A stretch of 64,000 nucleotides of DNA. It comes from Oceanibaculum pacificum. GTDB taxonomy: Bacteria > Pseudomonadota > Alphaproteobacteria > Oceanibaculales > Oceanibaculaceae. Shown here piece by piece: positions 5,500 to 58,384 of the stretch. The stretch lies in contig NZ_LPXN01000138.1 in assembly GCF_001618175.1 (NCBI RefSeq), forward strand, positions 1-64,000, given 5' to 3'. The notes under the pieces were generated by a model, which was given only the letters and a program-made list of their open reading frames with translations, was not told the origin of the DNA and did no database searches. Made by a program: the position numbers and the translations under genes. Positions within the stretch are counted from its first letter, which is position 1; every line of letters begins with the position of its first letter.

Positions 5500-5547
5500 A
5501 TGTCTTTCGGGCTGCTCGGTAATCCATAGGAGGCACGCGAGACGGCG

Positions 5548-5905
5548 CTACCGTGAAGCGTCCAGCCGCAAGCTGTTTGCCGTTTCGGACGCGAGCAGCT
5601 TGCGGCGGCGATGCAACAGAAGGGTTAATGCCAGCGCCCACCAAAACACGACGCCCATCAGCAGACTAACGAGAATGTGGATCGAAGGACCTTCGAGACC
5701 GAGCAGATCCTCGACCCGTGGAAGGCCGAGCAGGTCCATCCCCATGAGGATCACGATAGCGAGAAGGTTGCCGGGCCCGAGAAGCGCAACGCTGAAGACG
5801 GGAGAACTCAGGGCGCCCTGAGAAATAAGCAGTCCGGGAGGCCCCGCGAAGGCTAGCGACAACAGCCAACAAACCGACCAGCGTCGAACACACCGATTTG
5901 AAGAT
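5548..5905 (-). pseudogene. C-terminal fragment of a small membrane protein cut by an IS
   Basis: The minus strand from about 5905 to the stop at 5548 encodes three hydrophobic segments (WSVCWLLSLAFAGPPGLLI, FSVALLGPGNLLAIVILMGM, IHILVSLLMGVVFWWALALT) and a basic tail LLLHRRRKLL. The frame continues upstream only as antisense of the transposase, so the original N-terminus is missing. The family is unknown. The fragment is evidence that an IS inserted into a resident gene here. Confidence 0.5.
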
Positions 5906-5907
5906 AA

Positions 5908-6483
<576 letters not shown>

Positions 6484-45058: not shown

Positions 45059-45073
45059 TAAGAATGATTCGCA
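45059..45073. promoter_or_regulatory. Fur-like box upstream of or at the fecI1 start
   Basis: TAAGAATGATTCGCA fits a 7-1-7 inverted repeat close to TGCGAAT-N-ATTCGCA with two mismatches. It is 13 of 15 identical to the box upstream of the orphan FecI (58370-58384). It overlaps the ATG at 45064, which favours a later start codon for fecI1. Confidence 0.6.
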
Positions 45074-45600
45074 ATTCAGGGGCCTTTTTGAACCACGAGC
45101 CAACCATTGTGGAGCTGTTTTCAGCGCATCGGGGCGAGCTGGTGAATTACGCCAGCAGAATCCTGGGCGACCGGTCGCATGCCGAGGATGTGGTTCAGGA
45201 GGCTTACCTGCGTCTGGATTCGGCTATTGTCGATCAGCCCTTGCGCGAGCCGCTGGCCTATCTCTATCGCATCGTGCGCAACCTGTCCCTAGATGTGCGC
45301 CGCCGCCTGATGCGAGAGCGTGGCCGGATGCCGTCGGGCGGGGAGGCGGCGATGGATGAGATCGCCGAGGACCGTCCCTCGCCGGAGAGCGAAGTGGGAG
45401 CGCGCGGGGAAGTGCGCCTCCTCGCCCAGGCCATGGCGGAGCTGCCGGATCGTACGCGCGTAGCGCTGGAGATGCACCGCTTCGCCGGCTGCTCGATTCG
45501 TGAGATCGCCAACCGACTCGACATCTCGGTCGGTACGGCGCATGCGCTGGTCATCGACGGGATGGAACATTGCCGCCGCCGGCTGTTCCGCGGCCGATGA
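45064..45600 (+). CDS. FecI-type ECF sigma factor, system 1
   Basis: A sigma factor of up to 178 residues. Region 2 is AEDVVQEAYLRLDS; region 4 is MAELPDRTRVALEMHRFAGC then SIREIANRLDISVGTAHALV. It is followed by fecR and a TonB receptor, so it is of the iron-starvation FecI type: held by FecR until the receptor signals. The ATG at 45064 sits inside a Fur-like box. TTG 45088, with CAGGGG before it, or GTG 45109 are therefore plausible true starts. Confidence 0.88.
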   Translation: MIRNSGAFLNHEPTIVELFSAHRGELVNYASRILGDRSHAEDVVQEAYLRLDSAIVDQPLREPLAYLYRIVRNLSLDVRRRLMRERGRMPSGGEAAMDEIAEDRPSPESEVGARGEVRLLAQAMAELPDRTRVALEMHRFAGCSIREIANRLDISVGTAHALVIDGMEHCRRRLFRGR

Positions 45601-45610
45601 TCGGCCAATC

Positions 45611-45640
45611 TTTGAACGGGGCCGGTCGCCGGAGCGTCTA
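45611..45640 (+). promoter_or_regulatory. FecI1-type promoter before fecR1
   Basis: TTTGAACG (45611-45618), 16 bases, then CGTCTA (45635-45640). The same TTTGAACG-N16-CGTC occurs upstream of the system 1 receptor (46664-46691). CGT-containing -10 elements are usual for ECF sigma factors. Confidence 0.65.
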
Positions 45641-45675
45641 TAAAATAGTGCCGCGGCGAGAGGATGCAGCCGGAC

Positions 45676-46656
45676 ATGGATGACCGACGCCAACCGAGCA
45701 GCGCCAGCGAATGGCTGGTTGCCCTGCTCGATCAGCCGGATGACAGGAAGTTGCGCGCCGATTTCGCGCGCTGGATCGCGGCCAGTGCCGCCCACGCCCG
45801 GGATTGGGAGGAAATTGCCCAGACCTATGAGGCGATGGGCGAAGTGGCGCCGCTGCATCGCGCCTATTGGGCCGACCGTGAGGCCGTGTCCCGGCCGCTG
45901 CCGACCGTGGCGCCACGCCGCAAGGCGGGCCGCCGCGTCGGGCTGGGGCTTGCGGGCGTGGCAATGGCGGCCTGTCTGACGCTCGCGCTATTGCCGGACA
46001 TGATACTGCGATGGACCGCCGATTACGCAACGGAGACGGCCGAGCGGCAAACCGTGCGACTGGAAGATGGCAGCATCGTCCGGCTCGGCCCCGATAGTGC
46101 CCTGGAAATCGTCTATACCGAGGCCGAGCGTCGCGTGCGGCTGCTGGAAGGCCAGGCATTTTTCGAGGTCGCGGCCAATCTGGAGCGACCCTTTCGGGTG
46201 ACGGCGAATGCGGTCGAGGCCACGGTGATCGGCACCGCCTTCGAGGTGCGCATGGCGCATCGGGCCACGCGCGTCGCCGTGCGCGAAGGCAGTGTGCGCG
46301 TCAGTCGCGACGGCGTCGTGCCGCCGGTGAACGAGACATTGAGCGCCGGTGACTGGGCGCGCCTTTCATGGGATGGCGGTGACGACGGACGCGGCCATAT
46401 GCCGGCGCAGAACGTCGCGAGCTGGTTGGACGGGCAGCTGGTGGTGCAGGATCTCCCGGTGGCCGAGGTGGTGGCCGAGCTGCGGCATTATTATTCCGGC
46501 ATTGTCCTGGTCCAGGGCGACGCGCTGGCCGGCCGGCCCTTGACCGGGGTGTACAATCTTTCCGACCCGGTAGCGGCCTTCCGCGCCATCGCCAGCGCGC
46601 AGGGCGCATCCTTCCATCAGCTATCGCCCTGGGTCGTGCTGATTTCGGGCGGCTGA
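45676..46656 (+). CDS. FecR-type anti-sigma regulator, system 1
   Basis: A membrane-spanning regulator of 326 residues. The N-terminal cytoplasmic part contains SEWLVALLDQPDDRKLRADF and ARDWEEIAQTYEAM. One membrane helix follows (GLAGVAMAACLTLALLP, about 95-111). The periplasmic FecR domain includes RLEDGSIVRLGPDSALEI and RVRLLEGQAFFEVAANLERP. The end resembles an STN-like fold (VAEVVAELRHYYSGIVLV). ATG 45676 is chosen because the ATG at 45664 touches the ribosome binding site; either is possible. It passes the receptor signal to FecI1. Confidence 0.88.
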   Translation: MDDRRQPSSASEWLVALLDQPDDRKLRADFARWIAASAAHARDWEEIAQTYEAMGEVAPLHRAYWADREAVSRPLPTVAPRRKAGRRVGLGLAGVAMAACLTLALLPDMILRWTADYATETAERQTVRLEDGSIVRLGPDSALEIVYTEAERRVRLLEGQAFFEVAANLERPFRVTANAVEATVIGTAFEVRMAHRATRVAVREGSVRVSRDGVVPPVNETLSAGDWARLSWDGGDDGRGHMPAQNVASWLDGQLVVQDLPVAEVVAELRHYYSGIVLVQGDALAGRPLTGVYNLSDPVAAFRAIASAQGASFHQLSPWVVLISGG

Positions 46657-46663
46657 TTTTTTT

Positions 46664-46691
46664 TTTGAACGCCGGGCAATCCGCAATCGTC
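46664..46691 (+). promoter_or_regulatory. FecI1-type promoter before the system 1 receptor
   Basis: TTTGAACG (46664-46671), 16 bases, CGTC (46688-46691), the same elements and spacing as before fecR1. The ten-T run at 46657-46666 forms the upstream part of the -35 region. Confidence 0.65.
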
Positions 46692-46710
46692 TCTAAGTCA
46701 GATATTAAAA

Positions 46711-46727
46711 ATGCGTCGTAATCGCAT
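46711..46727. promoter_or_regulatory. Iron-regulator-like dyad before the system 1 receptor
   Basis: ATGCG-N7-CGCAT. The same arms and spacing occur before the system 2 receptor (55351-55367). It fits the outer bases of a TGCGAAT-N-ATTCGCA-type box. It lies just after the predicted promoter, a good place for repression. A further palindrome ATTGCGCGCAAT lies at 46734-46745. Confidence 0.55.
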
Positions 46728-46773
46728 CTGATGATTGCGCGCAATTTCCTGTCTGGAGGGGGAGTTGACGGAG

Positions 46774-49020
46774 ATGACGAAGGGGCACGGGAATTCGCGG
46801 CGATGGGCCGCGGCGCTGGCAATGTCGACCGCGCTGGCCACCACGCTTGTCGCGCTGCCGACGGCTGGCCAGGCGCAAGGCACGGGGCCAGCCACCGCTC
46901 AGACGCAGCAGCGCAGCTTCAACATTCCGCCGCAGCCAATGCCGGAGGCGCTGTCCCTGTTCGGCCGGCAGTCGGGCATGCAGGTTTCCGCCAATGGCGA
47001 TGCGGTGCGCGGCGCGCGCACCCAGGGCGTCAGCGGCACGATGGCCCCGGAAATCGCCTTGCAGCAGCTTCTCGCCGGTACCGGCCTCAGCTTCCGCCTG
47101 GAGCAGGGCGGCGCGGTGATTGTCGCCGCGCCGTCGACCAGCGGTTCGGCGACCATGCTGAGCCCCGTCATGGTGCAGGGTGCGGCGGTCGCGGACAAGC
47201 ATGCCGGGGCGGCCGACCGGGCCAACTCGATCACCATCGGCCTGGAGGATCTGGAGCGGCGTAACCCGAGTTCGCTGAAGGAAGTGTTCGCCGGCGAGGC
47301 CAGCGTTTCCGTCGGCGGCGGCCAGCCGATGAGCCAGAAGGTCTATGTGCAGGGCGTGGAGGAGACCAACCTCGCCATCACCATCGATGGCGCGCGGCAG
47401 AACAACAAGGTGTTCCACCACAACGCCACCAATCTGATCGACCCGTCGCTGCTGAAGCTGGCGCGCGTCGATCCGGGCGTCGCCCCGGCCGATGCCGGTC
47501 CCGGCGCCCTGGGCGGCTCCATCGTCTACGAGACGGTCGACGTGGCCGATGTGCTGGAGCCGGGCCGTTCGGTCGGCGGCTTCCTCAGCAGCGAGTACAA
47601 CACGAATGGCGACAGCCTGGCCTATAGCGGCTCGGCCTATGGCCGTTCCCAGGGCTTCGAAGTGCTGGGCTTCTACAAGAATTCCGACGGCAGCAACTAC
47701 AAGGATGGCGATGGCCGTTCCGTCGAGGGCACCGGCGCCGGCCTGGAAAGCGTGCTGGGCAAGGTCGGCTTCGAGAGCGACAGCGGCCACCGCTTCGAAT
47801 TCTCCGCCGAGCAGGTGCATGACGAGGCGGTGCGCCCGTTCCGCGCCAATATCGGCCGGCTGACCAACCGCAATGAAGGGCTGCGGCTCTACGATCTGAA
47901 GCGCCAGAACTTCGCCTTCAACTATTCCACGCCGAATGCCGATGGCATGTGGGACCCGAAGGCGGTGCTGGGCTATGGCCGCACCGAGGTCGGCGTGCCG
48001 ACGCCGTTCGGCAGCGTCGGCGAGACCAGCAGCCTGTCCGGCAAGCTGGAGAACAACTTCAACTTCAGCCCCGGCAACACGCTGACGGTCGGCGTCGATT
48101 TCTACGACGACAAGGCGGAATACGACGATCCGACGGTCAGCATCTACGAGGCGTCCACCAATGTCGGCCTGTACGCCCAGGCGCGCATAACCCCGGTCGA
48201 CCGGCTGCGGCTGTCCTTCGGCATGCGCGGCGACCAGAACTGGTTCGAAGGCACCGACGGCACCGAGATCGATCATGCCGGCCTGTCCGGCAACGCCTCG
48301 GCGGCCTATGACGCGACCGACTGGCTGACGCTGAAGGCGGGCTATTCCCGGGTTTTCGGCGGCATCACCCTGGCCGAGAACTTCATCCTGAACGAGAACT
48401 GGTCCTATGCCGGCGGCATCGAACCGGTGCGCGCCGAGAACATGACCCTGGGCTTCGAGACGCATCATCGCGGCTTCACCTTCGGGGCCGGCATCTTCCG
48501 CAGCGATTTCGACAATGCCCGCAACGAGACCTTCGGCGGCGGCCCGCAGATCACCTCGGATTTCGAGACCCAGGGCTACAACATCTCGGTCGGCTATAAT
48601 TGGGGTCCCGGCTTCGCCCGGCTGACCTATACCGACACCGATTTCGAGATCGACGGCATCACCGGCGATTCGGATTTCGGCCAATATCTCGGCACGCCGA
48701 TCGGCCAGATCTTCGCTTTCGAGGTCGCCCACAGCTTCGCCCGCACCGGCCTGACCCTTGGCGGCACTCTGGATGTGGCGCTGGAAAACGAGGACCCCGC
48801 CGGCGTCGGGCTGCAGCCGCTGGGTTCCTACGAATCCCTGAGCCTGTTTGCTGAATACCAGCCGCCGACGCTGCAATTCCTGACCCTGCGGGTGGAGGCG
48901 AACAATTTGTTCGACGAGACCTATGCCGACCGTGCCACCTATGGCCAGGAATTCGGCAATGTGATCCCGCTCTATGAGCCGGGCCGTTCCTTTCTCGTGA
49001 AAGCGAAGGTCACCTTCTGA
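46774..49020 (+). CDS. TonB-dependent receptor with STN signalling domain, system 1
   Basis: A 748-residue outer-membrane receptor. The signal peptide ends near AQAQG. The STN domain (FNIPPQPMPEALSLFGRQSG then MQVSANGDAVRG) contacts FecR. The plug follows (VYVQGVEETNLAITIDGARQ, AGPGALGGSIVYETVD-like GPGALGGSIVYET) and resembles the heme/hemoglobin/transferrin receptor group. The beta-barrel ends in aromatic KAKVTF. GGAGGGGGAG nine bases before ATG 46774 decides the start. It begins the ABC-transporter operon. Ligand: ferric siderophore or heme-like; not decidable here. Confidence 0.9.
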   Translation: MTKGHGNSRRWAAALAMSTALATTLVALPTAGQAQGTGPATAQTQQRSFNIPPQPMPEALSLFGRQSGMQVSANGDAVRGARTQGVSGTMAPEIALQQLLAGTGLSFRLEQGGAVIVAAPSTSGSATMLSPVMVQGAAVADKHAGAADRANSITIGLEDLERRNPSSLKEVFAGEASVSVGGGQPMSQKVYVQGVEETNLAITIDGARQNNKVFHHNATNLIDPSLLKLARVDPGVAPADAGPGALGGSIVYETVDVADVLEPGRSVGGFLSSEYNTNGDSLAYSGSAYGRSQGFEVLGFYKNSDGSNYKDGDGRSVEGTGAGLESVLGKVGFESDSGHRFEFSAEQVHDEAVRPFRANIGRLTNRNEGLRLYDLKRQNFAFNYSTPNADGMWDPKAVLGYGRTEVGVPTPFGSVGETSSLSGKLENNFNFSPGNTLTVGVDFYDDKAEYDDPTVSIYEASTNVGLYAQARITPVDRLRLSFGMRGDQNWFEGTDGTEIDHAGLSGNASAAYDATDWLTLKAGYSRVFGGITLAENFILNENWSYAGGIEPVRAENMTLGFETHHRGFTFGAGIFRSDFDNARNETFGGGPQITSDFETQGYNISVGYNWGPGFARLTYTDTDFEIDGITGDSDFGQYLGTPIGQIFAFEVAHSFARTGLTLGGTLDVALENEDPAGVGLQPLGSYESLSLFAEYQPPTLQFLTLRVEANNLFDETYADRATYGQEFGNVIPLYEPGRSFLVKAKVTF

Positions 49021-49022
49021 GC

Positions 49023-50141
49023 ATGCGGGCGTTCCTCATCGTCGCCGGGTTGCTGGCGGCACTGTTCTCCCCGGCGCGGGCGGAACGGATCGACATTGTC
49101 GACCGGGCCGGCCGCGCCGTGTCGGTTCAGCTGCCGGTGGAGCGCTTCGTCATCGGCGAGGGGCGCTATATTCCGCTGCTGGCCCTGCTGCGCCCGGAAA
49201 ACCCTGTGGCCGGGCTGGTCGGCACCATGTCGCCGCTGAGTCATACCGAGCCGGCGCTGGAGGCGCAGCTTTTCGAGCGCTTCCCGGCGGCGCGCGACAT
49301 CGCCCTGTTCGGCAGCAACAGCGCCGACAGCGTGTCGGTCGAGAAGATCATCGATCTGCAGCCGCAGCTCGCCATTTTCGGCCTCAGCGATCATGGGCCG
49401 GGGGCGAAGCATGCCGAATTGCTGCGCCAGCTGGAAGCGGCCGGCATTGCGGTGGTGTTCATCGATTTCCGGCTCAACCCGATGACCAACACGCTGCCCT
49501 CCATCGATCTTCTTGGCCGGCTGCTGGGGGCAGAGGACCGCGCCGCCGACTATGCCGCCTTCTATCGCGGGCGGCTGAAGACTATCCGCGAGCGCGTCGC
49601 CCAGGCGAAGACCCGCCCCAGCGTGTTCGTGCAGGCCCATCCTGGCCGCTTCGATTGCTGCTGGGGCATGGCCGAGGGCATGCTGGGCCCCTTCGTCGGC
49701 CTGGCGGGTGGGCACAATATAGCCGATGCCGTCGCCCCCGGCCCCACCGCGCAGCACACGGCGGAGTTCCTGCTGACCGAGAATCCCGATGTATGGATCG
49801 GCACTGCCAGCGGCACGCCGGCGGAATATCGCGCCGGCGGCAGCCCGGTGGCGCTCGGCGCGGGCATCTCAGCGCAGGATGCCGCCGATAGCCTGAAGCG
49901 CTATCTGTCCGCCCCGGAATTCCAGGCGATGGATGCGGTGCGCGGCGGGCGGGCGCACGCGGTCTGGCATAATTTCTATAATTCGCCGTTCAATATCGTG
50001 GCGCTGGAAGCCTTTGCGGTGTGGATGCATCCTGATCTGTTCGGCGATCTCGACCCGCAGCGCACCCTGGCGCATATCTACGAGGCCTATCTGCCCTTCA
50101 CGCTCGAAGGCACCTATTTCGCCACGGTGCCGCGTGACTGA
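49023..50141 (+). CDS. Ferric-siderophore/heme-type ABC binding protein
   Basis: A 372-residue periplasmic protein with a signal peptide (MRAFLIVAGLLAALFSPARA) and a FepB/BtuF-like fold: DRAGRAVSVQLPVERFVIGE, IIDLQPQLAIFGLSDHGPGA, VFVQAHPGRFDCCWGMAEGM. It starts two bases after the receptor stop and overlaps the permease start by eight bases, so it receives the receptor's cargo in the periplasm. Confidence 0.88.
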   Translation: MRAFLIVAGLLAALFSPARAERIDIVDRAGRAVSVQLPVERFVIGEGRYIPLLALLRPENPVAGLVGTMSPLSHTEPALEAQLFERFPAARDIALFGSNSADSVSVEKIIDLQPQLAIFGLSDHGPGAKHAELLRQLEAAGIAVVFIDFRLNPMTNTLPSIDLLGRLLGAEDRAADYAAFYRGRLKTIRERVAQAKTRPSVFVQAHPGRFDCCWGMAEGMLGPFVGLAGGHNIADAVAPGPTAQHTAEFLLTENPDVWIGTASGTPAEYRAGGSPVALGAGISAQDAADSLKRYLSAPEFQAMDAVRGGRAHAVWHNFYNSPFNIVALEAFAVWMHPDLFGDLDPQRTLAHIYEAYLPFTLEGTYFATVPRD

Positions 50142-51183
50142 CGCCGCCCCGTCGCTGCATGCCCGCTTCGGCCATATCCAGCGCCGGCGGGCGCTGGTCC
50201 TCGGGCTGCTGACGCTGGCCCTGCTGCTGTGCCTCGGCCTCGATCTGATGGCCGGGCCGGCCGGGCTGACCGCCGAGCAGATTCTGCGTGGGCTGTTCGA
50301 TCCCGAAAGCCTGGAACTGCGCCACCGCATCATCCTGTGGCAGGTGCGTCTGCCCGATGCGCTGATCGCGCTGTCGGTCGGCGCGGCGCTGGGGCTGGCG
50401 GGGGTCGAGACCCAGACCATCCTGGACAATCCGCTGGCCAGCCCGTTCACGCTGGGCGTCTCCTCCTCCGCCATGCTGGGGGCGGGTATCGCCATCGTGC
50501 TGGCCCCGGCGCTGCCCTTCGTGCCGGAAACCGCGGTGCTGCCGGTCATGGCGCTGATCTTCGCGCTAGGCTGCGGCGGGCTGATCCTGCTGGTGGTGCG
50601 GTTCGTCGGCGGGGCGCGGGAGACCGTGGTGCTGTTCGGCATCGCCATGGTGTTCCTGTGCAATGCGCTGACCTCGGCGCTGCACTACATCGCCGATGCC
50701 GACGGCATCCAGCAGATCGTGTTCTGGACCATCGGCAACCTGACCAAGGCGGGCTGGACCGAGGTGTGGATCGTCACCGCCTGCTTCCTGGCCGTGCTGC
50801 CCTTCAGCCTGCGCCATGTCTGGTTGATGACGCTGCTGCGCGGCGGCGAGGCGCATGCCCGCAGCGTCGGCATCGATGTTGCCCGGCTGCGGCTCTGGGT
50901 GATCCTGCGATCGTCGATCCTGACCGCCTTCGCGGTCTGCTTCGTCGGCACCATTGCCTTCATCGGGCTGGTCGGCCCGCATATCGCGCGGCTGCTGCTG
51001 GGCGAGGATCACCGCATGCTGGTGCCCGGCTCGGCCTTGTGCGGCGCGCTGATCCTTTCCGCCGCCTCCTTCCTGTCGAAGGCACTGATCCCCGGCGCGA
51101 TCATCCCGGTCGGCATCCTGACCGCGCTGGTCGGCGTGCCGGTGCTGCTGGCGCTGCTGATCGGCCAGCGGAGGCGGCCATGA
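50134..51183 (+). CDS. FecCD-family ABC permease
   Basis: A 349-residue permease of the iron-siderophore family. It has LRHRIILWQVRLPDALIALS, GAALGLAGVETQTILDNPLA (family SAVGAALAxAGxxxQxxxrNPLA block) and GTIAFIGLVGPHIARLLLGE. GTG 50134 overlaps the upstream stop (GTGACTGA); its stop overlaps the ATPase start. It probably works as a homodimer. Confidence 0.92.
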   Translation: MTDAAPSLHARFGHIQRRRALVLGLLTLALLLCLGLDLMAGPAGLTAEQILRGLFDPESLELRHRIILWQVRLPDALIALSVGAALGLAGVETQTILDNPLASPFTLGVSSSAMLGAGIAIVLAPALPFVPETAVLPVMALIFALGCGGLILLVVRFVGGARETVVLFGIAMVFLCNALTSALHYIADADGIQQIVFWTIGNLTKAGWTEVWIVTACFLAVLPFSLRHVWLMTLLRGGEAHARSVGIDVARLRLWVILRSSILTAFAVCFVGTIAFIGLVGPHIARLLLGEDHRMLVPGSALCGALILSAASFLSKALIPGAIIPVGILTALVGVPVLLALLIGQRRRP

Positions 51184-51977
51184 CCAGGCTGCGGGCGCAG
51201 GGCGTATCGGCGCGCTATGGCCGCACGCAGATCCTGTTCGACGTCACGCTGCCGGATCTGGCTGAGGGCGAGATACTGGGGCTGCTGGGGCCGAACGCCT
51301 CGGGCAAATCCACCCTGATGCGCTGCCTGTCGCGCGAGATGCGGGCCGAGGGGCTGATCGCGCTGGACGGTGTGGCGCAAGGGGATTACGGCGCGACGGG
51401 CTGGCGCGACAAGGTGGCGGCGATGCCGCAATCGCCGCCCTCGCCATCCGCCCTGCTGCCGACGGAGCTGATGTGGAGCACCGCGCGCGCCCTGGCGCTG
51501 GACATACCCGATGCCGCGCTGGCGGCGCGCATCGAGGCGATGTTCGCCGCCCTTGGCCTGTCCTCGGTCGCGCTGTCGCCGCTGCACACCCTGTCCGGCG
51601 GCAAGCGCCAGCTGGTCGGGCTGGCGCTGGCGCTGATCCGCGAGCCGGCGTTGCTGCTGCTCGACGAGCCGACCTCCGCCCTCGACCTGCATTGGCGCAT
51701 GGTGGTGCTGGATCTGGTGCGCGAGCGGCTGGCGCAGCGTGGCGGGGTGGCGATCGCCGCCCTGCACGATATCGACCTGGCGGCGCGCTATTGCGACCGG
51801 CTGGCCCTGCTGAGCCAGGGCCGCATCGTCGCCGCCGGCCGGCCGGCCGAGGTGCTGACGCCGGAGACCCTGGCCGCCGTCTTCCAGGTCGAGGCGGAGA
51901 TCGTGGCGCGGCCCGGCGGCGGCATCCTGGTCCATATCGTGCGGCCGCTGCCCCGGGCGCTGCACCGGCATGGCTGA
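51180..51977 (+). CDS. FepC-type ABC ATPase
   Basis: A 265-residue ATPase. Walker A GPNASGKST, signature LSGGKRQLV, Walker [14 protein letters not shown], switch His in ALHDIDLAARYCD. It is translationally coupled to the permease and to the following MATE gene. It powers import of the iron compound. Confidence 0.92.
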   Translation: MTRLRAQGVSARYGRTQILFDVTLPDLAEGEILGLLGPNASGKSTLMRCLSREMRAEGLIALDGVAQGDYGATGWRDKVAAMPQSPPSPSALLPTELMWSTARALALDIPDAALAARIEAMFAALGLSSVALSPLHTLSGGKRQLVGLALALIREPALLLLDEPTSALDLHWRMVVLDLVRERLAQRGGVAIAALHDIDLAARYCDRLALLSQGRIVAAGRPAEVLTPETLAAVFQVEAEIVARPGGGILVHIVRPLPRALHRHG

Positions 51978-53313
51978 AGCGGGACTGCGCCTTGTGCCCC
52001 TGGCGTTCGCGCTGGGGCTGGCGAATCTGTCGCATATCGCCATCGCGGCGACCGACCTGGTGATGATCGGCTGGCTGGGGCCGGCGGAGCTGGCCGCCGC
52101 ATCGCTGGCCAGCCATCTGTTCTATCTGCCGCTGTTCTGCCTGCTGGGCTTCGTCGGCGGGGCGGGCGCGCCGCTTGCCCGGCTGCTCGGCGCGGGCGAT
52201 CTGGCGGACGCGCGCGGCACGGTGACGGCGCTGGCGGCCGTCGGGGGCGTCCTTCTGCTGCCGATCCTGGCGCTGTCGGTGGCCGGGGAGGCGCTGCTGC
52301 TGTCCTTCGGCCAGGAACCCGGCCTGGCGCTGGCCGCTGGGCCATATCTTGCCTGGCTTGCCTGGTCCTCGCCCTGTATCGCGGTGTTCGCGGCGCTGTG
52401 GACAATCGCCGCCGTGCGCGGCCATGCCGCCGCCGTCAGCCGGATTTCGCTGCTGGCGATACCGGTGAACGCCGCCGGCAATGCGCTGTTCATGTTCGGT
52501 CTGCTGGGCCTGCCGGAACTGGGCCTTGTCGGCGCGGGCGTGGCCACCTTCCTGACGGTCCTGCTGAAGATGCTGGCGCTGCTCTTCTGGCTGTACCGGC
52601 GCGGCGCGCTGGCCGGGCTGCTCGGCGGATGGAGCCTCGCCAGCCTGCGGCGGCATCTGCCGGAAGTACTGTCCTATGGCGCGCCGATGGCGGTGCTGGA
52701 AGGCGCCACCATGGGCTTCTTCGCGGCCATCGCGATGATGACCGGCCTGCTGGGCGCGGCGGCGCTGGCCGCCAACGCCATCGCGCTGCAGGCGGCGGAG
52801 GTCGGCATCGCCTTCCTGTTCGGCATCGGCGAGGCCGCGACCATCGTCATCGCCTTCCATCGCGGGCAGGAGAATGGCGCGCGCTACCGTCGGGCCATCC
52901 GCCAGGCGCTGGCGGCGGCGCTGGCGGTTTCGGCGCTGTATGGCGCTTTCCTGGCGCTGGCGCGCGGGCCGCTGGTCGCGCTGGTGCTCGAACCGGGCGT
53001 GCCTTTCGCAACAGAGACGGCGGCGCTGGCCCAGCTCGTCCTGCTGTTCGCCGCCGCCAGCCTGCCGCTGGATTGCGGACGCATCGCGCTGGTCGGAATC
53101 CTGCGCGGCCTGGGCGATGCCCGATGGCCGGCCGGCATCGCCATTCTCGGCCTCTGGAGCGCCGGCATTCCCGTGGCGGCCTGGCTCAGCCTTGGCCAAG
53201 GCGTGGGGCTGCCCGGTATCTGGACCGGCATGCTGGTGGCGATGGCGCTCGTCTCCGCCGCCCTGTTCCAGCGCCTGCGGAGAGTTTTAAACCAGGAAAG
53301 GATGGTTTCATGA
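51970..53313 (+). CDS. MATE-family efflux transporter
   Basis: A 447-residue inner-membrane protein with twelve hydrophobic segments and MATE features (ATDLVMIGWLGPAELAAASL, GNALFMFGLLGLPELGLVGA, LPLDCGRIALVGILRGLGDA). It overlaps the ATPase gene by eight bases, so it is made with the iron importer. It may export a siderophore or a processed ligand; the family normally extrudes cationic compounds using Na+ or H+. Confidence 0.9.
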   Translation: MAEAGLRLVPLAFALGLANLSHIAIAATDLVMIGWLGPAELAAASLASHLFYLPLFCLLGFVGGAGAPLARLLGAGDLADARGTVTALAAVGGVLLLPILALSVAGEALLLSFGQEPGLALAAGPYLAWLAWSSPCIAVFAALWTIAAVRGHAAAVSRISLLAIPVNAAGNALFMFGLLGLPELGLVGAGVATFLTVLLKMLALLFWLYRRGALAGLLGGWSLASLRRHLPEVLSYGAPMAVLEGATMGFFAAIAMMTGLLGAAALAANAIALQAAEVGIAFLFGIGEAATIVIAFHRGQENGARYRRAIRQALAAALAVSALYGAFLALARGPLVALVLEPGVPFATETAALAQLVLLFAAASLPLDCGRIALVGILRGLGDARWPAGIAILGLWSAGIPVAAWLSLGQGVGLPGIWTGMLVAMALVSAALFQRLRRVLNQERMVS

Positions 53314-53594
53314 AGATCTCGGAAAGCCGGGTGGAAACGCAGAATGCCGGCCGTTATCTGGCCCAGCTGTGCAAGCATTTCGCCCATAAGCTGCCGGTGG
53401 AGCTGGACGACACCGTCGGCAGCATCGCCTTTTCCATCGGCATCTGCCGGCTGGAGGCGCAGCCAGCGGCGTTGCTGATGCGCTGCGAATCGCCGGATGC
53501 GGCAGCACTAGACCAGTTGCAGACGGTGATCGCCGACCATGTCGCCCGGTTTGGCTGGCGCGAAGCCCCGGAAATCGTGTGGCGCAGCCGTTAA
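53310..53594 (+). CDS. DUF2218 protein
   Basis: A 94-residue cytoplasmic protein with YLAQLCKHFAHKLPVELDD and the C-terminal half LDQLQTVIADHVARFGWREA, the DUF2218 pattern. The LCKHFAHK stretch puts one Cys and two His together and could bind metal. Its ATG overlaps the MATE stop (ATGA). It ends the operon. Members often sit beside siderophore genes; function unknown. Confidence 0.8.
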   Translation: MKISESRVETQNAGRYLAQLCKHFAHKLPVELDDTVGSIAFSIGICRLEAQPAALLMRCESPDAAALDQLQTVIADHVARFGWREAPEIVWRSR

Positions 53595-53667
53595 TCGAGA
53601 GGTACAAGCGCTTGCGGGAATCTGCGCAAGGCCGCCCTCGCCGTCGGCGGAACCGCCATTTGTTGAT

Positions 53668-53682
53668 TGCGAGTAAGAAGCA
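53668..53682. promoter_or_regulatory. Weak Fur-like site before fecI2
   Basis: TGCGAGTAAGAAGCA has the outer bases of the TGCGAAT-N-ATTCGCA pattern with four mismatches inside, flanked by ATTGC and GCAAT arms. It lies about 40 bases before fecI2. This is weaker than the boxes at fecI1 and fecI3. Confidence 0.35.
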
Positions 53683-53722
53683 ATAACGATACCTCTCAAG
53701 GGTCCAGGAGAGGGAAGCGCCG

Positions 53723-54238
53723 GTGACGGTCGATAAGCATGGAGAAGCCGGAGAGGCGGCGGCGCTGTTCGCGCAGCACCATCAGGCGCTGTGCCGGTTC
53801 CTGACCCACTTCCTGGGCTCGCGCGACCAGGCGGCTGATCTGGCGCAGGAATCCTATCTTCGCTTCCTGAAGGCGGTGCGTGAGACCCCGGCCCAGGATG
53901 GGCGGGGGCTGCTGTTCACCATTGCCGCCAATCTGGCCCGCGACGTGCGCCGCCAGCAGGCGCGCCGGCCGCATGTCGATATCGTGACGGTGGCGGCATC
54001 GCTGCCGAGTCCCGCCGCCTCGCCGGAAGTGACGCTGGAGGCGCGGCGGCGGCTGGCGCTGGTGCGCGACGCCATCGCCGAATTGCCGCCACGCAGCCGG
54101 GAGGTGTTCTTGCTGTTCCGCCTGGAAGGGCTGAGCTATCGCGACATCGCCGGGCGTCTGGGCATCTCGCCGCGCACCGTGGAATATCACGTGCAGCACG
54201 CCCTGCGCCTGTGCCATCGCAAAATGCGCGGCGGCTGA
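53723..54238 (+). CDS. FecI-type ECF sigma factor, system 2
   Basis: A 171-residue sigma factor. Region 2 is DQAADLAQESYLRFLKAV with ARDVRRQQARR. Region 4 is IAELPPRSREVFLLFRLEGL then SYRDIAGRLGISPRTVEYHV. GTG 53723 has AGGAGAGGG upstream. It precedes fecR2 and the second receptor and should read the promoters at 54239 and 55310. Confidence 0.9.
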   Translation: MTVDKHGEAGEAAALFAQHHQALCRFLTHFLGSRDQAADLAQESYLRFLKAVRETPAQDGRGLLFTIAANLARDVRRQQARRPHVDIVTVAASLPSPAASPEVTLEARRRLALVRDAIAELPPRSREVFLLFRLEGLSYRDIAGRLGISPRTVEYHVQHALRLCHRKMRGG

Positions 54239-54269
54239 CCCCGTGATTCGTGACGGCCGAGCGTCCTAT
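54239..54269 (+). promoter_or_regulatory. FecI2-type promoter before fecR2
   Basis: CCCCGTGATT (54239-54248), 13 bases, CGTCCTAT (54262-54269). The same arrangement, CCCCGTAATC-N13-CGTCCTAT, lies before the system 2 receptor. Because it lies beyond GTG 54250, it moves the likely fecR2 start downstream. Confidence 0.65.
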
Positions 54270-54315
54270 AATCATGACTCTGTTTCCCTCCCGGATCGGA
54301 CAAAGCCGCGTCGCC

Positions 54316-55302
54316 ATGCCGAACCCGTCTGCACCTGACGAAGAGCGCATCGTGGACGATGCCAGTGGCTGGTTTGCCCGGCTGCATGCCGACGATGCGA
54401 CCCCGGCCGATTGGCGGGCCTTCCATGCATGGCACGATTCCGACCCGCGTCACGCGGCCGCCTGGAGCGAGATCGAGGCGATCTTTGCCGCCAGCGGCGC
54501 CGTGGCGATGGAGCCGCGCATCGCCGGCATGACGCCGCGCGCGCCGCGTCCTGGCCTGCGACCGGCCCGCTGGGCCATGGCGGCCGCCATTCTGCTGATG
54601 GTCGGGGCGCGGGTGGGGCCGGATATCTGGATCGATCTGCGCGCCGACTACCGCACCGGCGGGCAGGAACGGCACCAGCAAGTGCTGGCCGATGGCAGCC
54701 GGGTGGAACTTAATGTGGATAGCGCGCTGGAGATCGCCGGCAGCGCGACGGAACGGCGCGTGCGGTTGCTGCGTGGGGAAGCCTTCTTCGAAATCGTGCC
54801 GGATGCGGATCGGCCCTTCGTGGTCGAGACCGCCTATGGCGCGGTCCGGGTGACCGGCACGGCCTTTGCGGTGCGGCTGCTGCCGGAAGGGGCCAAGGTG
54901 ACGGTCGCGCAGGGCACGGTCGAGGTGTTACCCGGAAGGAGCGACGGGGAGGGCGTGGGACAGGGCGACGAAGGGGCGGTCGTGCTGCGCGCCGGCCAGT
55001 CGGTCCGCACCCAGGCGATGGCGACGGGGCCGGTAGAGACGGTCGATGTCGCCTCCCTGCTGGCCTGGCGCGGCGGTCGGATCGTTTTCCGGCAGCGGCC
55101 GCTGGGCCAGGTGCTGGCGGAGTTGGAGCGTTATCGCCCCGGCATGATCCTGCTGCTGGACGACACGCTGGCGCAGCGGCCGGTGACCGGCGCGTTCGAT
55201 ATCGAGAATACCGACCGCGCGCTCTCCGCTCTGGCGGCGGTGATGAAGCTGGAAATCCGCCGGTTCTCGCCCCTGGTCACGGTGATTTCGGCGCGGTCGT
55301 AA
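54316..55302 (+). CDS. FecR-type anti-sigma regulator, system 2
   Basis: A 328-residue regulator. The cytoplasmic part has DDASGWFARLHADDATPADW and AWHDSDPRHAAAWSEIEAIF; one membrane helix follows (WAMAAAILLMVGARVGPDIW); then the FecR domain (LADGSRVELNVDSALEI, RRVRLLRGEAFFEIVPDADR). ATG 54316 is chosen because the predicted promoter ends at 54269; the frame is open to GTG 54250 and has another ATG at 54274. It controls FecI2. Confidence 0.88.
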   Translation: MPNPSAPDEERIVDDASGWFARLHADDATPADWRAFHAWHDSDPRHAAAWSEIEAIFAASGAVAMEPRIAGMTPRAPRPGLRPARWAMAAAILLMVGARVGPDIWIDLRADYRTGGQERHQQVLADGSRVELNVDSALEIAGSATERRVRLLRGEAFFEIVPDADRPFVVETAYGAVRVTGTAFAVRLLPEGAKVTVAQGTVEVLPGRSDGEGVGQGDEGAVVLRAGQSVRTQAMATGPVETVDVASLLAWRGGRIVFRQRPLGQVLAELERYRPGMILLLDDTLAQRPVTGAFDIENTDRALSALAAVMKLEIRRFSPLVTVISARS

Positions 55303-55309
55303 AAAATCA

Positions 55310-55340
55310 CCCCGTAATCGGCCCGCCTTTGTCGTCCTAT
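55310..55340 (+). promoter_or_regulatory. FecI2-type promoter before the system 2 receptor
   Basis: CCCCGTAATC (55310-55319), 13 bases, CGTCCTAT (55333-55340). It matches the fecR2 promoter in both elements and spacing, and differs from the system 1 promoters at the -35. Confidence 0.65.
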
Positions 55341-55350
55341 CGGCAGGGGA

Positions 55351-55367
55351 ATGCGAGTGCGTCGCAT
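55351..55367. promoter_or_regulatory. Iron-regulator-like dyad before the system 2 receptor
   Basis: ATGCG-N7-CGCAT, as before the system 1 receptor, and likewise directly after the promoter. The middle bases differ between the two, so the arms are what is conserved. Confidence 0.55.
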
Positions 55368-55393
55368 TTTTAGAACGATAGGGGCGTTGGACG

Positions 55394-57808
55394 ATGAACA
55401 AGCGTATGGCGGGGGCGGCCGGTCTCCGGTCGATGATGGTTGCGGTGCTGGCCGGCACCACGATGCTGACGGGGATCGCCACGGCCATGGCGCAGGCCAC
55501 GGCCCCGCAGCAGGCGCAGGCCAACAGCGCCCGCCAGACCCTCGCCATCGCGCCGCAGCCGCTCGACGATGCGCTGACGGCTTTCTCCAACGCCACCCGC
55601 ATCCAGGTGCTGGTCAGCGGCGATCTGACGCGCGGGGTGGCGTCGCCCGGCGCGCGCGGCATCTACAGCGCGGAACAGGCGCTGGTCGCGCTGCTGGCCG
55701 GCACAGGGTTGACCTATCGCTATGTCGATGCCGTCACGGTCACGCTGGTGCCGGCTCCCGCGCGCGCGCCAAGCGCCGCGCCTGCCGCCGCGGCGAGCGG
55801 TGCTGCGGCGCTCGCGCTGGCGCCGGTGACCGTGTTTGGCGCCAAGACGACGACCACGCTGGAAGATGTCACCTCCAGCGTCGGCATCGTCAGCCAGCAG
55901 GATATCGAGCGCCGGGAAATCCGCGATATCCGCAGCAGCTTCCGCACCATGGCGAATGTGCAGGATTCGGATTTCAACGATGCCGGCTTCGTCATTCGCG
56001 GCCTGAATTCCGAGGGGCTGACGCCCGGCGGCGCGCCGCTGGCCAGTTTCTATATCGACGGCGTGCAGCAGACCGTGATGGGCGCGCGGCGCGGCGCGCG
56101 CGGCCTGTTCGATGCGCAGCAGGTGGAGGTCTATCGCGGCCCGCAATCCACCCTGGCCGGGCGTGCCGCGCTGGCCGGCGCGGTCTATGTAAAGACCAAG
56201 GATCCGACCTACGAATACGAGGCCGAGGCCGAGGGGCTGGTCGGCAACATGGATACGCGCGGCGGCGCGCTGATGGTGAATGCCCCCCTGGTGGACAACC
56301 AGGCGGCGTTGCGCCTGACGGCCGAATATCAGCGCAGCGAGAGCGAGATCAATTATCCGACCTACAGCAATTTCGCCAATTACGAGGATATCTTCACCGA
56401 CGAGTATTTCACCATCCGCGGCAAATTCCTGCTGGAACCGGACAAGTTCGACGATACGCGGGCGCTGGTGACCTACTCCTATTCCGAGGACGCGCCGGCG
56501 CTGCGCGATATCGCCGGGCCCGGGCTCGGCTTCGCGTTCGACGAGAAGCGGGGCGATTTCAACACGCCGAACTTCGCCGAGATTCGGCGCGGCTTCGTGC
56601 ATAATGCCGGGCTGGAGGTCACGCATGATTTCAGCGACAGCCTGATGCTGACCTCGCACACCGGCTTCACCCGCTCGCAGACCGACCGGCCGTCGGTCAA
56701 TGCCGGCACGCCGGGCGAGACCGATATCACTCTGGGGCGGTTCGTTCAGTCGTTGATCACCCAGGAGTTCCGGCTGAATTATTACGGCGACCGGCTGGAC
56801 GCCGTGTTCGGCCTGTATGGTTCTTACCAGGACGACGATAATAATTATCTGCGGCCGAATTATTTCGGCGCTTCCTCGGACATCAGCCAGTCGACGCAGG
56901 AGACGCGCAATCTGGCGATGTTCGGCGAGGCGACCTACGAGTTCGTGCCGAGCTGGAAATTCGTGCTTGGCGGCCGCGTCGACTATACCGACCAGGACGG
57001 CACCCAGTTCTTTTCGCGCAACGGCGTGGCGTCGACCGATTTCAACTATACGGTCCGGGAGACGGTGCTGCTGCCGAAGATCGGCATCATCAAGGAGCTG
57101 GGTCCCGACCATTCGGTCGGCTTCACGATCCAGGAAGGCTTCCGCGCGGGTGGCGCCGGCCTTCAGCGCTCGACCGGCCAAGTCTACACCTTCGACCCGG
57201 AATATGCCTGGAACTATGAGCTTTCCTACAAGGGCCGCTACCTGAACAACCGGCTGAACGTGGCCGCCAACCTGTTCTATGTCGATTACAAGGACCAGCA
57301 GGTGGAAACGCTGGCGACGCCGGGGGATTTCTCCTCCTCGTCGGTCGTGAATGCCGCCAGCTCGCGCGCCTACGGCTTCGAGGTGGAGGCCCAGGCGTCG
57401 CTGACGCGGGAGCTGACCGGCTTTCTGTCGGTGGGGTATGTCGATACCGAGTTCGAGGATTTCGACAGCGCCAGCGCCGGCAATCTGTCCGGCCTGCCCT
57501 TCCCGGAAGCGCCGGAATGGAGCGTGGCGCTGGGCGCGCTGTACGAGCACCGCTCCGGCTTCTTCATCGGCGCGGACGCGAAATACACGGACGATTTCAT
57601 GGCCCGCCTGGGCAGCGCGCCGCAGGATACGCTCAGCAGCTATGTCACGGCCAACGCCCAGGTCGGCTATCGCTATGAGAACTGGACCGCGACGTTGTTC
57701 GCCGAGAACATCTTCGACAAGGAATATTTTCTCTATAACGACAATGACATCGCCGCCACGGTCGGCATGCCGCGCTTCGTCGGCGTGAAGCTGAACATGA
57801 AATTCTAA
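55394..57808 (+). CDS. TonB-dependent receptor with STN signalling domain, system 2
   Basis: An 804-residue outer-membrane receptor. The signal peptide ends near AMAQA. The STN domain is LAIAPQPLDDALTAFSNATR. An Ala/Pro-rich linker follows, then the plug (VIRGLNSEGLTPGGAPLASF, FDAQQVEVYRGPQSTLAGRA) and a barrel of the FyuA/FhuA siderophore-receptor style ending GVKLNMKF. No transporter follows it, so cargo entering here must use other ABC genes, perhaps those of system 1. A strong stem-loop lies after the stop. Confidence 0.9.
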   Translation: MNKRMAGAAGLRSMMVAVLAGTTMLTGIATAMAQATAPQQAQANSARQTLAIAPQPLDDALTAFSNATRIQVLVSGDLTRGVASPGARGIYSAEQALVALLAGTGLTYRYVDAVTVTLVPAPARAPSAAPAAAASGAAALALAPVTVFGAKTTTTLEDVTSSVGIVSQQDIERREIRDIRSSFRTMANVQDSDFNDAGFVIRGLNSEGLTPGGAPLASFYIDGVQQTVMGARRGARGLFDAQQVEVYRGPQSTLAGRAALAGAVYVKTKDPTYEYEAEAEGLVGNMDTRGGALMVNAPLVDNQAALRLTAEYQRSESEINYPTYSNFANYEDIFTDEYFTIRGKFLLEPDKFDDTRALVTYSYSEDAPALRDIAGPGLGFAFDEKRGDFNTPNFAEIRRGFVHNAGLEVTHDFSDSLMLTSHTGFTRSQTDRPSVNAGTPGETDITLGRFVQSLITQEFRLNYYGDRLDAVFGLYGSYQDDDNNYLRPNYFGASSDISQSTQETRNLAMFGEATYEFVPSWKFVLGGRVDYTDQDGTQFFSRNGVASTDFNYTVRETVLLPKIGIIKELGPDHSVGFTIQEGFRAGGAGLQRSTGQVYTFDPEYAWNYELSYKGRYLNNRLNVAANLFYVDYKDQQVETLATPGDFSSSSVVNAASSRAYGFEVEAQASLTRELTGFLSVGYVDTEFEDFDSASAGNLSGLPFPEAPEWSVALGALYEHRSGFFIGADAKYTDDFMARLGSAPQDTLSSYVTANAQVGYRYENWTATLFAENIFDKEYFLYNDNDIAATVGMPRFVGVKLNMKF

Positions 57809-57918: not shown

Positions 57919-58320
57919 TCAATCCAACTTTCTGGCAAGGCTATGGGCCGGGCTCTTCCTAGATAGGACGGATGTGAGGCCGGGAGTCGGTTCGCTCTGG
58001 CCGCACGCCACCTGTTCGGGCGAGGGCGCGTCGTCGGGTGTCTCGGCCAGCCGGTCCTCCAGACCCGAATCGGCATTTTCCCGCCGCTGCCCGCGCACAT
58101 AATCGACCGCCAGATTATGCGCCACGCGATACAGATAGGAGCGGTCATGGCTGATCGGGGTGATCGCCGCCGGGCTGCCGCTATGCTCCGCGAAGCGCAG
58201 AAAGGTCTCCTGCGTCAGTTCCGCGGCAACGTCGGCGTTGCGCAGTTTCCGGGTGAGGTAGGCTTGCAACTCGCCGCGATGCGCGAGGAACAGCCGCTTG
58301 ATATCGTTGCCTCCCACCAT
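57919..58320 (-). CDS. Orphan FecI-type sigma factor lacking region 4
   Basis: A 133-residue protein. Region 2 is intact: IKRLFLAHRGELQAYLTRKL, VAAELTQETFLRFAEH, SYLYRVAHNLAVDYVRGQRR. After a normal linker (DDAPSPEQVACGQ) the sequence changes to SEPTPGLTSVLSRKSPAHSL and stops, without the -35-binding helix-turn-helix. FecI proteins are usually near 165-175 residues. No fecR or receptor follows it. A good Fur-like box lies 50 bases upstream. It may be a decaying gene or, less likely, a region-2-only variant. Confidence 0.7.
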   Translation of the reverse strand: MVGGNDIKRLFLAHRGELQAYLTRKLRNADVAAELTQETFLRFAEHSGSPAAITPISHDRSYLYRVAHNLAVDYVRGQRRENADSGLEDRLAETPDDAPSPEQVACGQSEPTPGLTSVLSRKSPAHSLARKLD

Positions 58321-58369: not shown

Positions 58370-58384
58370 TGAGAATTATTCGCA
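58370..58384. promoter_or_regulatory. Fur-like box upstream of the orphan FecI
   Basis: TGAGAATTATTCGCA on the plus strand (TGCGAATAATTCTCA on the gene strand) differs from the ideal TGCGAAT-N-ATTCGCA dyad at one base. It is 13 of 15 identical to the fecI1 box. Confidence 0.65.

What the first reader, a model, noticed from the sequence alone, without database searches (positions are those of the whole stretch)
45611..55340. Two ECF systems whose promoters can be read by internal comparison and look orthogonal
Upstream of fecR1 and receptor 1 the same TTTGAACG-N16-CGTC occurs (45611, 46664). Upstream of fecR2 and receptor 2 the same CCCCGTRATY-N13-CGTCCTAT occurs (54239, 55310). Spacing is identical within each pair and the -35 parts differ between pairs, while both keep CGTC at -10. 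Two independent matches per system make chance unlikely. It predicts that each FecI reads its own two promoters, and that fecR is autoregulated in both loci.
Basis: seen in the sequence. Interest (0 to 1): 0.72.

Follow-up and report, generated by a model that had tools for sequence, protein, structure and literature searches.

The report
Paired sigma promoters in iron cassettes
In this bacterium each iron-uptake control system carries two copies of its own private start signal, one before the gene of its brake protein and one before its receptor gene, a layout long described as an exception but apparently common in relatives.

Summary
TTTGAACG-N16-CGTC occurs exactly twice in the 3.89-Mb draft genome and CCCCGTRATY-N13-CGTCCTAT exactly twice, upstream of fecR and receptor of system 1 and of system 2. 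System 1's TGAAC-N17-CGTC is kept at both sites in all four genus members. A third system elsewhere in the genome has the same paired layout with a third -35. First, fecI is not predicted to be autoregulated: fecR is the sigma target, as in Serratia HasI-HasS. Second, the two promoters are not equivalent: a Fur-box-like palindrome (TGC-N9-GCA) follows the receptor promoter but not the fecR promoter. Over 109 FecI-FecR loci, 32 of 67 with a gap over 60 nt show a shared promoter (p<=0.05) against 1 of 32 with coupled genes; a hold-out of 46 gave 14 of 26 against 0 of 17. The palindrome lies after fecR in 37 of 109 loci and before it in 3. Orthogonality is plausible (distinct -35s and recognition helices) but unproven. 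HasIS-type systems; the generality looks new.

The parts
45059..45073 (.). Fur-box-like TAAGAATGATTCGCA overlapping the ATG of fecI1
   Evidence: read; congener G002 has TGAGAATGATTCTCA near its fecI1 start. Window site assigned by eye, not caught by the scan patterns
45064..45600 (+). fecI1, FecI-type ECF sigma factor
   Evidence: Pfam Sigma70_r2 and r4
45611..45638 (+). predicted FecI1 promoter of fecR1, TTTGAACG-N16-CGTC
   Evidence: exact pair only in genome; conserved in G001-G003
45664..46656 (+). fecR1, FecR-type anti-sigma/sigma regulator
   Evidence: Pfam FecR and DUF4880
46664..46691 (+). predicted FecI1 promoter of receptor 1, TTTGAACG-N16-CGTC
46712..46726 (.). Fur-box-like palindrome TGCGTCGTAATCGCA after receptor-1 promoter
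   Evidence: same spacing (24 nt from CGTC) in the three congeners
46774..49020 (+). receptor 1, TonB-dependent receptor with STN signalling domain (best NCBIfam hit heme/hemoglobin type, below cut-off)
49023..53594 (+). periplasmic binding protein, FecCD permease, ATPase, MATE transporter, DUF2218 protein; conserved cluster downstream of receptor 1
   Evidence: 89-98% identical in G002
53668..53682 (.). TGC-N9-GCA box TGCGAGTAAGAAGCA upstream of fecI2
53723..54238 (+). fecI2, FecI-type ECF sigma factor
54239..54269 (+). predicted FecI2 promoter of fecR2, CCCCGTGATT-N13-CGTCCTAT
   Evidence: exact pair only in genome
54316..55302 (+). fecR2, FecR-type regulator (start revised from GTG 54250)
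   Evidence: profile match begins at 54324
55310..55340 (+). predicted FecI2 promoter of receptor 2, CCCCGTAATC-N13-CGTCCTAT
55352..55366 (.). Fur-box-like palindrome TGCGAGTGCGTCGCA after receptor-2 promoter
55394..57808 (+). receptor 2, TonB-dependent siderophore-type receptor with STN domain

Best explanation
Both loci are FecI-FecR-receptor cell-surface signalling cassettes wired like Serratia HasI-HasS-HasR. Fur controls the sigma gene (inferred). When iron is scarce FecI is made; basal FecR can come by read-through from fecI, since no terminator-like site was found between them. When the receptor binds its iron carrier, its STN domain signals to FecR and frees FecI (established for the family, not shown here). 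FecI-RNA polymerase then starts transcription at two copies of its own promoter: one before fecR, restoring the regulator in step with output, and one before the receptor, giving positive feedback on the sensor. Only the receptor promoter also carries a Fur-like operator just downstream of its -10, so the receptor needs FecI and iron scarcity, while fecR needs FecI only. On iron recovery receptor synthesis should stop while fecR transcription continues as long as FecI persists, shutting FecI off. Each system has its own -35, so the three systems of this genome are expected to be insulated. Shown: sites, pairing, conservation, box asymmetry. Inferred: sigma binding, Fur binding, dynamics, insulation.
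For: Exact pairs unique genome-wide. TGAAC-N17-CGTC at 8 of 8 sites in four congeners. Third system in the same genome with GGTRAR...CGTCATAGC twice, conserved in G003. Survey: 18 of 41 gap>60 loci paired against 1 of 15 with gap<=25; hold-out 14 of 26 against 0 of 17. TGC-N9-GCA after fecR 37 of 109, before 3 of 109. TGCRAWTNAWTYGCA: 8 sites in the genome against 0 for the reversed control, one before class II fumarase and one before a sigma fragment. E. coli fecIR overlaps by 4 nt and gives no pair (P=0.70), as expected of the coupled type. HasI activates hasS and hasR through a shared -35 sequence; hasI but not hasS is Fur-repressed (PMC9249621, passages). S. meliloti has transcript starts mapped before fecR and before the receptor, without a motif found (PMC6180224, passages).
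Against: No transcript data for this organism. 35 of 67 loci with gap>60 do not reach p<=0.05. The box was called Fur from its form and few neighbours; one neighbour first read as an iron-binding protein was not confirmed as such. The exact -35 core of system 2 is unsure: relatives of FecI2 with a TVxVHM helix use GTAAT-N17/18-CGTC, whereas here GTRAT is 14 nt from CGTC. A 2022 review states that iron-uptake sigma factors other than HasI do not activate the anti-sigma gene. In S. meliloti FecI overexpression did not raise fecR or receptor transcripts.
Confidence: 0.8

Rival explanations
1. Only the receptor promoters are functional; the copies before fecR are weak or decayed and fecR is transcribed from the fecI promoter, as in E. 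coli.
For: No terminator-like site between fecI and fecR, so read-through is possible; the review describes fecIR as one Fur-controlled transcript without autoregulation in E. coli.
Against: The fecR copy is conserved in four congeners while spacer bases differ, and shared promoters are largely restricted to loci where fecI and fecR are separated.
Confidence: 0.1
2. The two FecI proteins cross-activate all four promoters because both recognise CGTC at -10; the -35 difference only tunes strength.
For: CGTC shared by all four sites; in E. coli fecA, -35 mutations had a much smaller effect than -10 mutations (PMC9249621 passage).
Against: Distinct recognition helices SVGTAHALV, SPRTVEYHV, SQTTVENHM track -35 class, helix r=0.57, P=0.0002 in 16 pruned systems, though region 2 gives r=0.54, so ancestry alone could explain it. 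Same-genome cross-scores are 2-8 against own 8-12, own strictly best in 15 of 15 systems, which were selected for their own match.
Confidence: 0.2
3. The palindrome after the receptor promoter is not a Fur operator but a 5'-UTR RNA element or the site of another regulator.
For: It lies downstream of the -10, in the predicted leader; its centre often departs from the 7-1-7 Fur form.
Against: The same outer TGC/GCA frame recurs before fecI, where the form is closer to TGCGAATNATTCGCA; no Rfam match in 40000-62000.
Confidence: 0.25
4. The paired motifs are chance similarities in GC-rich spacers picked out by eye.
For: Patterns were chosen after seeing the sequence; one-mismatch counts of motif 1 are near the control.
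Against: Shuffle P=0.002 and 0.004, 17 of 300 false positives on mismatched pairs, conservation in congeners, hold-out replication.
Confidence: 0.02

Closest known systems
HasI-HasS-HasR of Serratia marcescens (heme/hemophore signalling)
   Same: Sigma gene under Fur, anti-sigma and receptor genes each with a copy of the sigma's own promoter; the anti-sigma gene lacks Fur control (PMC9249621 passages).
   Different: Different -35 sequences (TTTACGGGTTT there); no evidence of a hemophore here; here several such systems sit in one genome, and a Fur-like box marks the receptor promoter. Whether hasR has such a box was not checked.
FecI-FecR-FecA of Escherichia coli
   Same: Protein families, gene order, FecI promoter just after fecR; Fur control of both fecI and fecA promoters.
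   Different: fecI and fecR overlap by 4 nt in E. coli with no promoter between; fecIR is not autoregulated there.
FecI-FecR-SMc04205 of Sinorhizobium meliloti
   Same: Alphaproteobacterial cassette with transcript starts mapped before fecR and before the receptor (PMC6180224 passages).
   Different: No promoter motif was found there and FecI overexpression did not raise fecR or receptor.

Membership tests
FecI-FecR-TonB receptor cell-surface signalling | ECF sigma factor with regions 2 and 4 | tested here: met
   Pfam, both sigma proteins
FecI-FecR-TonB receptor cell-surface signalling | FecR-domain regulator encoded next to it | tested here: met
   Pfam FecR and DUF4880, both
FecI-FecR-TonB receptor cell-surface signalling | TonB-dependent receptor with N-terminal STN signalling domain next to fecR | tested here: met
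   Pfam STN, Plug, barrel, both
FecI-FecR-TonB receptor cell-surface signalling | ligand-dependent release of the sigma factor | not testable with these tools
   needs an experiment
HasIS-type regulation | same sigma promoter before anti-sigma gene and receptor gene | tested here: met
HasIS-type regulation | sigma gene itself lacks that promoter | tested here: met
   no motif hit before either fecI genome-wide at <=1 mismatch (motif 1) or <=3 (motif 2)
HasIS-type regulation | Fur site at sigma gene, none at anti-sigma gene | tested here: inconclusive
   fecI2 has TGC-N9-GCA, fecI1 a box read by eye; none before fecR1 or fecR2. Fur binding not shown
HasIS-type regulation | anti-sigma transcription depends on the sigma factor | not testable with these tools
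   needs mutants or reporters
E. coli-type coupled fecIR | fecI and fecR overlapping or co-transcribed with no promoter between | tested here: not met
   gaps of 63 nt (45600 to 45664) and 77 nt (54238 to 54316), each holding the motif; E. coli control overlaps by 4 nt

The most novel reading that the evidence does not exclude
HasIS-type wiring, described as an exception, is a common design of alphaproteobacterial FecI-FecR cassettes whenever fecI and fecR are separated, coupled cassettes lack it, and the receptor promoter alone bears a Fur operator. FecI-class promoters, hard to predict because these sigmas do not autoregulate, can then be read from a single genome by comparing the two gaps around fecR.
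Probability: 0.65. Interest if true: 0.65.

Novelty: new member of a known kind. Interest (0 to 1): 0.52.

Why it matters
Reviews name FecI-like systems as the exception to ECF autoregulation (PMC8103513 passage) and HasI as the one iron sigma that transcribes its anti-sigma gene. If the survey holds, that picture comes from a coupled gene order, and many alphaproteobacteria use the other wiring. It also gives a simple way to assign promoters to many FecI paralogs, to ask which sigma residues set the -35, and perhaps to explain the S. meliloti transcript starts that lacked a motif.

Tried and rejected
Extra targets: motif 1 relaxed (YTGAAC-N17-CGTCYNTA, one mismatch) gave 14 sites, 12 besides the pair, against 15 for the control, so no further regulon is claimed. 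Mantel test for a sigma-helix/-35 code: significant, but region 2 scores as well, so ancestry is not excluded. Terminators and RNA families around the cassettes: nothing relevant. First survey window (20 of 63 at p<=0.05) was replaced by a tighter one (22 of 63) before the hold-out. FutA/iron-binding reading of the gene behind one Fur-like box: not confirmed by NCBIfam, dropped. A guessed link of system-2 GTRAT to the GTAAT class failed on spacing. The ECF reclassification paper (10.1093/nar/gkaa1229) and Rodionov 2006 (10.1371/journal.pcbi.0020163) are not held, so novelty against them is unchecked.

Full report
Observation. The four sites exist where stated. The exact form of motif 1 occurs only twice in the 3.89-Mb draft genome (181 contigs), both times here; with one mismatch the total is 15 against 9 for the reversed pattern, so only the exact pair is special. 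Motif 2 also occurs only twice, with one other site at three mismatches. Against shuffled partner regions the shared match has P=0.002 (system 1) and 0.004 (system 2) in 500 shuffles.

Genes. Both loci encode an ECF sigma factor, a FecR protein with DUF4880, and a TonB-dependent receptor with STN domain. Receptor 1 is nearest heme/hemoglobin receptors and receptor 2 nearest siderophore receptors, both below curated cut-offs. System 1 is followed by a binding protein, FecCD permease, ATPase, MATE and DUF2218 genes. The fecR2 ORF start at 54250 lies inside the promoter; the FecR profile begins at 54324 and ATG 54316 is the likely start.

A third system. The genome holds three FecR genes. The third, outside the window, has GGTGAAGCGCCCGGCCAGACGTCATAGC before fecR and GGTAAGCGGCCCGCTCACCCGTCATAGC before the receptor, with an ortholog in congener G003 that keeps both.

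Footprint. Orthologs of system 1 in G001, G002 and G003 all keep TGAAC-N17-CGTC before fecR and before the receptor, 8 of 8 sites counting the window, while spacer bases differ. System 2 has no close ortholog in the congeners: its best FecR match there is 40% identical.

Survey. Profiles for FecR and FecI found 128 FecR ORFs in the loci then held, 123 with fecI upstream, 63 distinct systems after removing duplicates. These were chosen by similarity to FecI1, FecI2, FecR1 and FecR2, so they are not a random sample, and some are related to each other. I did not require the gene after fecR to be a receptor. The region before FecR was compared with the region after fecR by a CGT-anchored score and 500 shuffles: 22 of 63 reached p<=0.05; 18 of 41 with a fecI-fecR gap over 60 nt, 3 of 7 with 26-60 nt, 1 of 15 with 25 nt or less. 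Gap is measured to the FecR profile start, not the start codon. Leaving out the own genome and congener orthologs leaves 13 of 35, 1 of 5 and 1 of 15. Mismatched loci give 17 of 300.

Hold-out. I wrote down the predictions after fetching 69 further loci and before analysing them. Of 68 FecR ORFs, 6 lacked fecI and 9 were duplicates; 53 remained, 46 after dropping those with FecI 70% or more identical to the first set. Result: 14 of 26 (gap>60), 1 of 3 (26-60), 0 of 17 (<=25); Fisher P=0.00015 for the extremes. By eye some missed loci also look paired (for example L272, L258, L273), so the test may under-count; I did not add them.

Box asymmetry. TGC-N9-GCA occurs in the 150 nt after fecR in 25 of 63 (2.9 expected from shuffles) and before FecR in 1 of 63; in the hold-out 12 of 46 (1.5 expected) against 2 of 46. 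Upstream of fecI the same frame occurs in 21 of 63, and others there carry TGAGAATNATTCTCA-like forms. In system 1 and its three orthologs the box begins 24 nt after the C of CGTC. In this genome TGCRAWTNAWTYGCA with one mismatch has 8 sites and the control none; a class II fumarase follows one and a truncated ECF sigma gene another. That Fur in such alphaproteobacteria uses this box, and that class II fumarase is a usual iron-regulated gene, I recall and did not verify; the Caulobacter paper (PMC3751524), seen in passages, gives only a 19-bp Fur palindrome without letters.

Orthogonality. FecI1, FecI2 and FecI3 have different recognition helices and different -35 elements. Across systems helix and -35 similarity correlate (r=0.74 in 22 systems; r=0.57, P=0.0002 in 16 pruned), but region 2 does as well (0.73; 0.54), so shared ancestry is enough to explain it. 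In the genomes with at least two paired systems, each of 15 systems matches its own partner best; they were selected for their own match, which favours this result. System 2's -35 core is uncertain.

Known background. The 2022 review (PMC9249621, passages) says iron sigma factors do not activate their anti-sigma gene except HasI, that hasS and hasR share TTTACGGGTTT in the -35 region, and that hasI but not hasS is Fur-repressed. PMC8103513 (passages) lists FecI-like systems as exceptions to autoregulation. PMC6180224 (passages) reports transcript starts before fecR and the receptor in S. meliloti with no motif, and no response of these two genes to FecI overexpression. PMC3597554 (passages) reports fecR genes nearly silent in sigma mutants of P. 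syringae, read there as operon structure. PMC12772443 (passages) reports no autoregulation at the hemI promoter of S. maltophilia. E. coli K-12, with fecI and fecR overlapping by 4 nt, gives no pair in a variant of the test that also allowed TGT as anchor (P=0.70).

Verdict. The cassettes are HasIS-type members of a known kind. What seems new is how common the wiring is and that it follows the fecI-fecR spacing; I found no statement of this in the searches named in Tried and rejected, but the main ECF classification paper was not available.

Noticed in passing
57919-58320 (-), box 58370-58384: Truncated ECF sigma gene with region 2 only, convergent with receptor 2; no region 4 recognised by eye in any frame of that strand. 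It keeps a Fur-like box TGAGAATTATTCGCA and a sigma-70-like promoter match.
   Followed up: partly
53723-57808 and L232 about 4700-6300: Congener G002 keeps the system-1 cluster (receptor 93%, permease 98%) but carries a different FecI-FecR cassette (L043) downstream of it, where system 2 lies here: a site of cassette exchange.
   Followed up: partly
45664-46656: fecR1 is only 75% identical to its G002 ortholog, although the receptor is 93% and the binding protein, permease and ATPase 95-98% identical.
   Followed up: no
L191, L192, L196, L205, L086: FecI proteins with a TVxVHM recognition helix share [GC]TAAT-N17/18-CGTC sites (ATAAT once in L192) around fecR, a possible specificity class.
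   Followed up: partly
45059-45073: The fecI1 ATG lies inside its Fur-like box; G002 likewise has TGAGAATGATTCTCA at its fecI1 start.
   Followed up: no
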